Shown: in pieces, positions 13,400-15,020 of the stretch
How positions within the stretch are numbered: the stretch's first letter is position 1
Layout of the letters: the number at the start of each line of letters is the position of its first letter
From: a virus
Virus record (IMG/VR): IMGVR_UViG_3300030102_005019
Location: 1-57,469 of that record
Reading direction: 5' to 3' (one strand)
DNA: 57,469 nt
Program-made: the position numbers and the translations under genes
The notes under the pieces: model-generated
What the model was told of the DNA's origin: nothing
What the model saw: only the letters and a program-made list of their open reading frames with translations
The model's database searches: none

Positions 13400-13777
13400 A
13401 TGAATAAAATTACAACATTAAAAGCTGATGATAACCTGCGTGAAACAACAGGTAGTTACAAAATAGGTTCTTTAGACAATGTACACTTTAAAGATCTAGT
13501 AAACATGTTGGGTGAACCAACGTTATCAGGTGAATCTGGCGACGGTAAAGTTCAGTTTGAATGGGTGCTAGAGCATGACAATAGGCTCTATACAATATAT
13601 GACTGGAAAACATACGACGCAGAGTACACATTAAACGAGTTAACAACCTGGTCTGTAGGTGGTAAAGAATATATAGACAATGATTTTGTAACAGAAATAT
13701 TCAGGTTGTGTGAAGAAAATTGTCCAGAAAACGTAGCTGAAAGTATTATGTTTTATAGTGGATCTGGATTTAAGTAG
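13400..13777 (+). CDS. 125-aa acidic early protein, unknown
   Basis: MNKITTLKADDNLRETTGSY begins an acidic mixed alpha/beta protein with a beta-rich core (VQFEWVLEHDNRLYTIYDWK) and a helical end (FVTEIFRLCEENCPENVAES). It is the largest gene in this part of the early region. It stops exactly where the large structured region begins; the final G of its TAG is the first base of that region's closing stem. No family recognised. Confidence 0.7.
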   Translation: MNKITTLKADDNLRETTGSYKIGSLDNVHFKDLVNMLGEPTLSGESGDGKVQFEWVLEHDNRLYTIYDWKTYDAEYTLNELTTWSVGGKEYIDNDFVTEIFRLCEENCPENVAESIMFYSGSGFK

Positions 13778-13913
13778 GCGGCGGCATACTGGTCACGTTA
13801 GCTTTATACCCGTTAGAAACAATGGTTGAATCCATGACGGTCGTCAAAGCAAAACAGAAAGAGCGGATAAATGATAATACTAGTTAGCTACCAGTCCGCA
13901 ACTGCTGCCTTAT

Positions 13914-14018
13914 TGGCATGATATGGTATTAAAGAGATAACACTAATGATTAGCTGGAACATAAGAAACACGCTGTCGCATAAGAACTCTTACGAAGGTT
14001 CGACTCCTTCCATGTCAA
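13914..14018 (+). other. tRNA-like element (acceptor stem plus T-arm) inside the large RNA
   Basis: TGGCATG 13914-13920 pairs with CATGTCA 14011-14017 over 7 bp (one G-T). The 3' strand is directly preceded by a canonical T-arm: GAAGG, loop TTCGACT, CCTTC (13994-14010), followed by discriminator A. CCA is not encoded. The 73 nt between acceptor and T-arm exceed those of a normal tRNA and fold into no clear D-arm or anticodon arm; only a short TAAG/CTTA arm precedes the T-arm. It is therefore tRNA-like (or a decayed or interrupted tRNA), not a callable tRNA. Confidence 0.6.
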
Positions 14019-14020
14019 CT

Positions 14021-14090
14021 AAGTTATGGCCGAGGATCCATATTAGGTTTTTATTATTTTTATTTTTCATATTTACCTTGGTCATAACTT
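14021..14090. promoter_or_regulatory. 15-bp hairpin with AT-rich loop inside the large RNA
   Basis: AAGTTATGGCCGAGG pairs with CCTTGGTCATAACTT over all 15 positions (two wobbles), starting 2 nt after the tRNA-like element. The 40-nt loop is mostly T on this strand. It may separate RNA domains, act as a processing site or terminate transcription. Confidence 0.6.
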
Positions 14091-14536
14091 TAATATAGCT
14101 GTAGGTGGGGTTGCAAACCCACTGAAGAGTTAGTACCCAACAACGCCTTGCGGGAACAAGGGGTAGGGGGTTGCTCAGTCATCTAGACGACATGCTTATA
14201 AATATAAGTATGATAATCAGAGATATACTGAGAGCGATTAAGATCTATTACAAAGGAACTATATAGATTGTTCCATGATAGGTATGAAGCTGGCTGATAA
14301 TTAAGGAACACCTCACGCTATTGAGGTTAGCCAGACTGTTGTAATCAGATATGATTATTCAATGAGTAGTAATACTTAAGAATAGTGGTTGAACACTGCA
14401 ACAAGCTATCAAGATTAAGCGGGTAAACCGATTAGCTAGGTCTTATGGTGTCTATACGCCGTCTAACTCGCGCTTAATGTAGCCAACGACGGTCACAAGC
14501 CCGTGTAAATACAGAGTGAGCGCAAAATTATAAATT

Positions 14537-14707
14537 ATGGGAATTACAAAAAAACAATTTAATTCGTACGTAACAGTACAAGAATCAGGTATTACTAATA
14601 TGTTCAACGTATCATTAGTAACTGACTTGACAGGGCTGACAAAAGATCAGTGTATTGACATAATGAAAAATTATGAAGAATACAGTAAAAAGTTTTCGAG
14701 TGTATAG
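14537..14707 (+). CDS. 56-aa early protein, unknown
   Basis: MGITKKQFNSYVTVQESGIT opens a short protein with helix-rich end (LTKDQCIDIMKNYEEYSKKF). The leader AAAATTATAAATTATG is typical of this genome. It starts immediately after the large structured region, and its last codons lie within a GTGTATAGCA repeat (14700-14709). No family recognised. Confidence 0.65.
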   Translation: MGITKKQFNSYVTVQESGITNMFNVSLVTDLTGLTKDQCIDIMKNYEEYSKKFSSV

Positions 14708-14771: not shown

Positions 14772-15020
14772 ATGGGAAACATGAGTTATTGCCGCTTTGA
14801 AAATACAGCGGGAGATTTAGAAGATTGTGTACACGCAATCGAAAACGGCGAGATGACAGTAGAAATGTCAGATTACGAAGTTGATGCTTTACAAGATCTG
14901 TTAAACCACAGCTTAAGCATTGTGGCTATGAGAAGAGAAATTGAAAGAGCTATAGATGCGTGGCATGAGCACGAGGCAGAAATGGAAAGACAAGAGGAAG
15001 AAGAGGAAGAAGAAGAATAA
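14772..15020 (+). CDS. 82-aa acidic protein of a widespread phage type
   Basis: The N-terminus MGNMSYCRFENTAGDLEDCV is a pattern I recall from many short, uncharacterised phage and bacterial proteins. A helical middle follows, and the C-terminus is an uninterrupted run of Glu. The acidic tail suggests binding to a basic partner or DNA mimicry, unproven. It shares the A of its TAA stop with the next ATG. Confidence 0.7.
   Translation: MGNMSYCRFENTAGDLEDCVHAIENGEMTVEMSDYEVDALQDLLNHSLSIVAMRREIERAIDAWHEHEAEMERQEEEEEEEE

What the first reader, a model, noticed from the sequence alone, without database searches (positions are those of the whole stretch)
13914..14018. tRNA-like acceptor and T-arm embedded in the large RNA
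A 7-bp acceptor pairing, a 5-bp T-stem with TTCGACT loop and a discriminator base sit in exactly the right order, but the intervening 73 nt form no standard D or anticodon arms. It could recruit RNase P/Z for end formation, mimic a tRNA, or be a tRNA interrupted by an insertion.
Basis: seen in the sequence. Interest (0 to 1): 0.72.

Follow-up and report, generated by a model that had tools for sequence, protein, structure and literature searches.

The report
Phage mini-tmRNA lacking its tag sequence
The virus carries a small RNA that looks like the tRNA half of a bacterial ribosome-rescue RNA with its message part missing, one of a large family in related phages, and it probably interferes with the host's ribosome rescue.

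Summary
Window 13914-14018 holds a 7-bp acceptor, a 5-bp T-arm and discriminator A73 around 73 nt with no D or anticodon arm. It is not an interrupted tRNA and not intrinsic to the downstream large RNA. It belongs to a family of tRNA-like structures (TLSs) in related phage contigs. A model built without the window finds exactly 13914-14018 (45.9 bits, E 3e-9, only hit). In 24 aligned relatives selected by the upstream pseudoknot domain, acceptor and T-stem pair in every sequence, with compensatory changes, and G3.U70 plus A73, the alanine identity set shared with tmRNA, never change. Relatives match Rfam tmRNA end to end with the mRNA-like region deleted; three records exceed the curated cut-off. 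The window itself does not match Rfam tmRNA. Best reading: a tag-less ('TLD-only') tmRNA mimic, alanylated by the host and competing with host tmRNA-SmpB. A comparable RNA is reported for mycobacteriophage DS6A, and such molecules inhibit tmRNA (PMC4131195). New here: a family of dozens, a conserved 5' pseudoknot domain, variable arms, and G3.U70 conservation suggesting that charging matters. Function is inferred, not shown.

The parts
13776..13910 (+). 5' pseudoknot domain (PK): P1 13776-13782/13904-13910, P2 13789-13793/13890-13894, P4 13863-13867/13895-13899 (P2 and P4 interleave), variable hairpin between P2 and P4; begins at the stop codon of the gene 13400-13777
   Evidence: covariation in 24 relatives: P1 91.7%, P2 100%, P4 96.6% of cells paired, 7 pairs with changes on both sides; no Rfam match over this domain better than chance
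13911..13913 (+). 3-nt linker between PK domain and acceptor
   Evidence: sequence; alignment A2
13914..13920 (+). acceptor stem 5' strand TGGCATG, with G3
13921..13926 (+). D-loop-like ATATGG (family A-A/T-A-A/T-GG), no D stem
   Evidence: alignments A2, A3; tmRNA alignment of relative L068
13932..13991 (+). variable arm, closed in the window by AAGAG 13932-13936 / CTCTT 13987-13991; stands where tmRNA has helix P2 and the whole mRNA-like region
   Evidence: stem test over 63 TLS: mean longest stem 5.73 against 4.40 (sd 0.12) for re-dealt arms; the window stem is 5 bp, weak alone
13994..14010 (+). T-arm GAAGG TTCGACT CCTTC
14011..14017 (+). acceptor stem 3' strand CATGTCA, with U70
14018..14018 (+). 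discriminator A73; no CCA encoded

Best explanation
13914-14018 is a TLD-only, tag-less tmRNA-like RNA: acceptor stem with G3.U70 and A73, D-loop without D stem, one variable arm in place of the anticodon arm and mRNA-like domain, and a T-arm. Proposed mechanism: it is transcribed with the upstream pseudoknot domain; host RNase P cuts before 13914 and host enzymes trim after 14018 and add CCA (inferred); host alanyl-tRNA synthetase charges it through G3.U70/A73 (inferred from invariance and from the known identity rule); it binds SmpB and/or EF-Tu and competes with host tmRNA, so that stalled ribosomes are not tagged normally during infection (inferred by analogy with the reported inhibition of tmRNA by TLD-only molecules such as that of phage DS6A). 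Shown here: the structure, its conservation, the covariation, the tmRNA-type anatomy of the family, and the lack of room for a tag message. My estimates: tmRNA-type TLS rather than degenerate tRNA 0.85; alanylated 0.7; interferes with trans-translation 0.45.
For: (1) Held-out model R2 finds the window TLS, 45.9 bits, only hit. (2) Relatives selected by the PK domain and a T-loop motif: 24 of 24 aligned have 7/7 acceptor, 5/5 T-stem, G3.U70 and A73, with CG<->AU at 4:69 and CG/GC/AU and AU/CG changes in the T-stem. (3) In a scan that did not require G3.U70, 66 of 72 candidates had it. (4) Rfam tmRNA RF00023 outscores Rfam tRNA (same clan) on 9 TLSs in 12 loci, 33.4-38.2 bits over model 1-374, while tRNA-Met genes beside them score as tRNA; 12 of 12 records hit, 3 over the gathering score 47; L068 aligns as GGGGGUGAUAUGGUUUUGACG...CGGAAGACAGUUCGAUUCUGUCCACCUCCA with a P2 helix and the mRNA-like region missing. 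(5) Interval 37-111 nt in 63 members leaves no room for a tag-coding domain with pseudoknots. (6) Literature: the third acceptor pair of tmRNA is completely conserved as G-U, an identity determinant for AlaRS (PMC3985003, passage); DS6A is 'TLD only', and a similar molecule, chargeable or not, strongly inhibits tmRNA, perhaps by titrating SmpB (PMC4131195, passage; PMC11915505, passage). (7) No SmpB gene in 13 of 13 records searched, so any SmpB used would be the host's.
Against: The window copy itself gives no Rfam tmRNA match at E<=1 and lacks the tmRNA D-loop motif; its membership rests on the phage family. It is the only one of 24 with U1-A72 and A5-U68. In 6 of 37 PK loci the slot after the PK domain holds an ordinary tRNA-Met instead of a TLS, which a pure processing role would also predict. 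The 14 control genomes, archaea included, also give matches to RF00023 (9 over the cut-off), so weak matches of that model alone are not proof; the comparison with the tRNA model and the over-cut-off records carry the weight. TLD-only inhibition is reported to work without charging, so invariant G3.U70 is not required by that mechanism. No expression, processing, charging or binding data exist here.
Confidence: 0.5

Rival explanations
1. Processing signal: the TLS is an RNase P / 3'-end substrate whose job is to give the upstream pseudoknot RNA a clean 3' end (as tRNA punctuation does), with no role for the released TLS itself.
For: It follows P1 of the PK domain within a few nt in 26 of 37 PK loci, and in 6 of 37 an ordinary tRNA-Met occupies the same slot. 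Acceptor plus T-arm is a sufficient RNase P substrate (established knowledge, recalled).
Against: RNase P does not need G3.U70 (recalled), yet it is kept in 24 of 24 and 66 of 72 while pair 4:69 varies freely. TLSs also occur without the PK domain directly upstream (rows, for example L151, L162, L170).
Confidence: 0.25
2. Structural module of a larger scaffold RNA: PK, TLS, tRNA-Met and other hairpins form one long phage RNA in which the TLS is an architectural element.
For: Tandem structured domains with short linkers (L117 7860-8264) and recurrent arm motifs shared among TLS arms and, for two motifs, PK loops.
Against: Does not explain alanine identity; the TLS follows protein-like sequence with no other domain in some rows (L162, L166, L170).
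Confidence: 0.15
3. Degenerate or interrupted tRNA gene (tRNA-Ala remnant, or a tRNA with an insertion).
For: Rfam tRNA is the best clan match for the window copy, 22.7 bits.
Against: Compensatory changes at 5 of 12 pairs in 24 relatives; no D or anticodon arm in relatives; tmRNA outscores tRNA on relatives; ARAGORN finds nothing.
Confidence: 0.07
4. attP-type tRNA fragment: a 3' tRNA-gene end kept as the integration core of a temperate phage.
For: Phage attP sites often carry T-arm plus acceptor 3' end (recalled).
Against: No tyrosine-recombinase match in the window record (the record may be incomplete); the 5' acceptor strand co-varies with the 3' strand; more than one TLS match per record in several relatives.
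Confidence: 0.03

Closest known systems
TLD-only tmRNA of mycobacteriophage DS6A (PMC4131195 and PMC11915505, passages read; Mao et al. 2009 not held)
   Same: Phage-encoded, little more than the tmRNA tRNA-like domain, no tag message; such molecules inhibit tmRNA.
   Different: Different phage group; here dozens of members, a variable arm, a linked 5' pseudoknot domain, and a D-loop GGTWAG rather than the tmRNA motif in most. DS6A's sequence could not be fetched, so the two were not aligned.
Tag-less mitochondrial tmRNA of jakobids and oomycetes (PMC11915505, PMC3985003, PMC4131195, passages read; primary papers not held)
   Same: tRNA-like domain without tag reading frame; one- or two-piece.
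   Different: Organellar, usually permuted genes, partnered with nucleus-encoded SmpB; the phage records searched encode no SmpB.
Canonical tmRNA, Rfam RF00023
   Same: Acceptor with G3.U70, A73, D-loop without D stem, T-arm, connector helix; relatives align 1-374 with the middle deleted.
   Different: No mRNA-like domain or pseudoknots inside; the window copy is not matched.
tRNA-like structures with upstream pseudoknot domain at 3' ends of plant virus RNAs (recalled, lead only)
   Same: Pseudoknot domain followed by a tRNA-like acceptor.
   Different: DNA phage, not a genome 3' end; no homology claimed or tested.

Membership tests
tmRNA (RF00023) | 7-bp acceptor with G3.U70 and A73 | tested here: met
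   Window and 24 of 24 aligned rows, window included
tmRNA (RF00023) | D-loop without D stem, with GG | tested here: met
   ATATGG in the window; family A-A/T-A-A/T-GG; the UUCGAC part is kept (as UUUGAC) only in the L068/L186/L193 type
tmRNA (RF00023) | Connector helix between D-loop and T-arm | tested here: inconclusive
   5 bp in the window; 63-member mean stem 5.73 against 4.40 re-dealt, 48 of 63 at least 5 bp, but so are 40% of mispaired arms
tmRNA (RF00023) | mRNA-like domain with tag reading frame and pseudoknots | tested here: not met
   73 nt in the window, 37-111 nt in 63 members
tmRNA (RF00023) | Curated covariance-model cut-off | tested here: not met
   Window: no match at E<=1. 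Relatives: 12 of 12 records match, 3 of 12 over cut-off
tmRNA (RF00023) | Alanylation and SmpB binding | not testable with these tools
   Needs biochemistry
TLD-only phage tmRNA (DS6A type) | TLD with no tag message in a phage genome | tested here: met
   Family level
TLD-only phage tmRNA (DS6A type) | Sequence homology to the DS6A RNA | not testable with these tools
   The DS6A accessions that I tried are not in the collection
TLD-only phage tmRNA (DS6A type) | Inhibits host tmRNA | not testable with these tools
   Needs an in vivo tagging assay
tRNA (RF00005) | D arm and anticodon arm, cut-off 29 bits | tested here: not met
   22.7 bits; ARAGORN none
This phage TLS family (model R2) | Match to a model built without the window | tested here: met
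   45.9 bits, E 3.1e-9; best score in other loci apart from true TLSs 20.6 bits, an ordinary tRNA-Tyr

The most novel reading that the evidence does not exclude
A large family of phage RNAs has reduced tmRNA to an alanylated tRNA-like domain whose missing message is replaced by an exchangeable arm. Because G3.U70 and A73 are held invariant while the arm turns over, the charged RNA may actively enter stalled ribosomes with host SmpB and EF-Tu and hand over a single alanine, producing a tag-less rescue or a deliberate dead end. The arm cassettes and the 5' pseudoknot domain would tune this to host factors.
Probability: 0.22. Interest if true: 0.82.

Novelty: new variant of a known kind. Interest (0 to 1): 0.62.

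Why it matters
Tag-less tmRNAs have been isolated oddities (one mycobacteriophage, some mitochondria and plastids, per PMC11915505). A family with dozens of variable members in environmental phage contigs suggests that interfering with, or rewiring, ribosome rescue is a recurrent phage strategy, and gives natural variants with which to ask which parts of the tRNA-like domain are needed for charging, SmpB binding and ribosome entry. Standard tools miss it: ARAGORN and Rfam cut-offs report nothing in this window.

Tried and rejected
Rejected: (a) ordinary tRNA or tRNA with insertion. (b) The stretch 13700-14600 as a known Rfam RNA such as a group I intron, GOLLD or ROOL (names recalled): no such match at E<=10; the only strong one is twister-P1. 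(c) attP remnant: no tyrosine integrase in the record. (d) Isolate phages: blastn with the whole region and with the PK-TLS of L075 listed only short matches in the best rows shown (tRNA or twister pieces), none covering 80% of the query, so the family was not found in the phage collection at that sensitivity. (e) Cellular homologues: one genome-contig scan gave two contigs, both of one MAG labelled Aliivibrio Ust_30, one of which (L185) carries the PK-TLS pair of the phages; I read these as phage contigs in the bin, not tested further. (f) Exact shared 13-mers between PK loops and TLS arms: only 1 of 26 loops and 1 of 63 arms, so cassette exchange between the two is weakly supported; motif-level recurrence is, with motifs that I chose by eye. 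(g) A scan for the downstream RNA with the pattern failed because my pattern fixed a length that L091 does not have; the shorter pattern found L091 only.

Rows dropped: A2 uses 24 of the 34 PK loci; I left out 5 with tRNA-Met in the slot (L134, L047, L110, L115, L116) and 5 where the acceptor does not follow directly or no TLS was seen (L135, L138, L139, L140, L141). So the 100% pairing in A2 is for loci already seen to have a TLS directly after the PK; the fair count over all PK loci is the 26 of 37. A3/A4 (30/29 rows) were my choice from the rows plus L185; the rows had been required to have 7/7 acceptor, 5/5 T-stem, G3 and U70, so the 100% pairing and G3.U70 are by construction and are not used as evidence. 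One search dropped the G3.U70 requirement but still required at least 6/7 acceptor pairs, a 5/5 T-stem and a D-loop-like motif. One search lists 58 rows because two seeds hit many loci twice; the 37 are distinct loci counted by name, and three further seed matches without P2' (L144, L148, L149) were dropped. Of the 72, the 6 without G.U are L140, L153 and L133:10516 (chance-like, my judgement) and L038, L045:3297 and L133:14394 (TLS-like with other third pairs); of the 66 with G.U, 64 have A73 by subtraction from that output.

Papers: read only as passages: PMC11915505, PMC3985003, PMC4131195. Others seen only as search listings. I found no description of this phage family in those searches; most subscription papers are not held.

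Full report
What is in the sequence. The noncoding stretch 13778-14540 lies after a gene ending at 13777 and upstream of a small gene at 14772. ARAGORN finds nothing. Rfam at gathering cut-offs finds nothing in the window; loosely, tRNA gives 22.7 bits at this place and twister-P1 55.8 bits at 14471-14522. The 763-nt stretch folds with z -4.0 against 20 shuffles.

Where it comes from. The window is a 57,469-base virus record. Its primase/helicase is closest, 41%, to Cellulophaga phage phi10:1 among isolate phages, so a flavobacterial host is likely (inference). Eighty IMG/VR loci with primases 72-77% identical in the best segment were fetched.

Two modules. BLAST of the stretch against the loci then held showed 13778-13801 and about 13849-13928 conserved in relatives that lack the rest, while L091 holds 14086-14539 at 91% identity. 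In L091 the TLS lies about 680 nt away from that downstream RNA. So the TLS belongs with the upstream domain, and the downstream RNA ending in the twister ribozyme is a separate element that happens to follow it here.

The upstream domain. Alignment and covariation give a closing helix P1 and two interleaved helices P2 and P4, a pseudoknot, with a variable hairpin between. The acceptor starts a few nt after P1. Searching by PK motifs only gave 37 distinct loci, window included: 26 have a TLS directly after P1 with 7/7 acceptor, 5/5 T-stem, G3.U70 and A73; 3 (L135, L139, L141) have the T-arm and 3' acceptor after an extra hairpin; 6 have a tRNA-Met there; 2 (L138, L140) show neither within 260 nt. 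L139 and L141 have the full TLS; L135 gives only a shortened 47-nt match; L138 has a TLS elsewhere.

The TLS family. A scan by pattern found TLSs in 45 viral stretches; a regex over all held loci gave 63 distinct TLSs, window included. The plan is NGGNRTG, A-A/T-A-A/T-GG, a short link, a variable arm, usually AAC, T-arm, CAYNTCC, A. On 24 PK-selected rows, 100% of acceptor and T-stem cells pair, with changes on both sides at three acceptor pairs (1:72, 4:69, 5:68) and two T-stem pairs; G3.U70 is unchanged in 24 of 24; sliding the partners destroys the signal. When G3.U70 is not required, 66 of 72 have it. The arm between is variable (37-111 nt) but tends to be closed by a helix: mean longest stem 5.73 against 4.40 when arms are re-dealt.

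It is of tmRNA type. Rfam tmRNA is the best clan match for 9 TLSs in 12 loci (33.4-38.2 bits; gathering 47), while the neighbouring tRNA-Met genes are called tRNA. In 12 of 12 records searched whole there is a match, over the cut-off in 3; control genomes also ring, so the over-cut-off records and the win over the tRNA model carry the weight. The strongest type, in L068, reads like a tmRNA whose middle was cut out: acceptor, UGGUUUUGACG, connector helix, CGGA, T-arm. The type of L117 aligns too, at 38 bits. The window copy is a divergent member: no Rfam tmRNA match at E<=1, but 45.9 bits with a model that never saw it. R2 finds members in 35 of 80 primase-relative records at E<=0.01 (many records are fragments, so absence means little). 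Ordinary tRNAs in 28 other loci reach at most 20.6 bits.

How it most likely works. tmRNA's third acceptor pair is completely conserved as G-U for AlaRS (PMC3985003). A TLD-only RNA is known from phage DS6A, and a similar molecule, chargeable or not, strongly inhibits tmRNA, perhaps by titrating SmpB (PMC4131195; PMC11915505). The simplest reading is a phage decoy or competitor for host trans-translation. None of 13 records searched encodes SmpB, so it would act through the host's. The invariance of G3.U70 goes beyond what pure SmpB titration needs and suggests that the charged form matters; that step is inference. The main rival is a processing role for the upstream pseudoknot RNA, supported by the 6 loci with tRNA-Met in the same slot.

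Membership. It is not a canonical tmRNA: the mRNA-like domain is absent and the curated score is not met by the window copy. It works like (inferred), and at family level resembles, a TLD-only tmRNA. I file it as a new variant of that known kind.

Noticed in passing
14471-14522: Type-P1 twister ribozyme at the 3' end of the downstream RNA (55.8 bits, gathering 67.2, E 1.2e-11); similar twisters in 27 viral stretches by pattern.
   Followed up: partly
14021-14540: Separate 0.5-kb structured RNA starting with a long hairpin (14021-14031/14080-14090, read by eye) and ending in the twister; a 91% identical copy of 14086-14539 exists in L091, the only stretch found by an exact 27-mer scan. No Rfam family apart from the twister.
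   Followed up: partly
L045:3297, L133 reverse-strand 14394, L038:3576: TLS-like structures whose third acceptor pair is not G.U and whose discriminator is T or C: possibly second TLSs with another amino-acid identity.
   Followed up: no
L021, L186, L193, L192, L140 (sequences shown): Another T-arm-bearing module (AACTAGG...CTAGTTA) beside the TLSs in several relatives, perhaps a second tRNA-like class.
   Followed up: no
L117:7860-8264 and relatives: Array of structured domains after a protein gene: a hairpin domain (GAGTAGCTTAATTAGG...ACATAAGTGAATAGC), PK, TLS, tRNA-Met; other relatives carry further hairpin domains in the same place.
   Followed up: partly
TLS arms and PK loops of many loci: Recurrent arm motifs, for example AAATAGGAG...CACACTAA in 5 TLS arms and 17 contexts; AAAGGCG...GGCTCGATG in 2 TLS arms and 2 PK loops: looks like exchangeable RNA cassettes.
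   Followed up: partly
L187, L189, L191, L194, L195: About 80-nt tag-less tmRNA-like RNAs (GGGGATGATNNGGGTTCGACG...) with different sequence surroundings from the flavophage-like contigs; R2 35.5-40.5 bits.
   Followed up: partly
L184, L185: Two contigs of one MAG labelled Aliivibrio Ust_30 carry the TLS, one with the PK domain; probably phage contigs in the bin.
   Followed up: no
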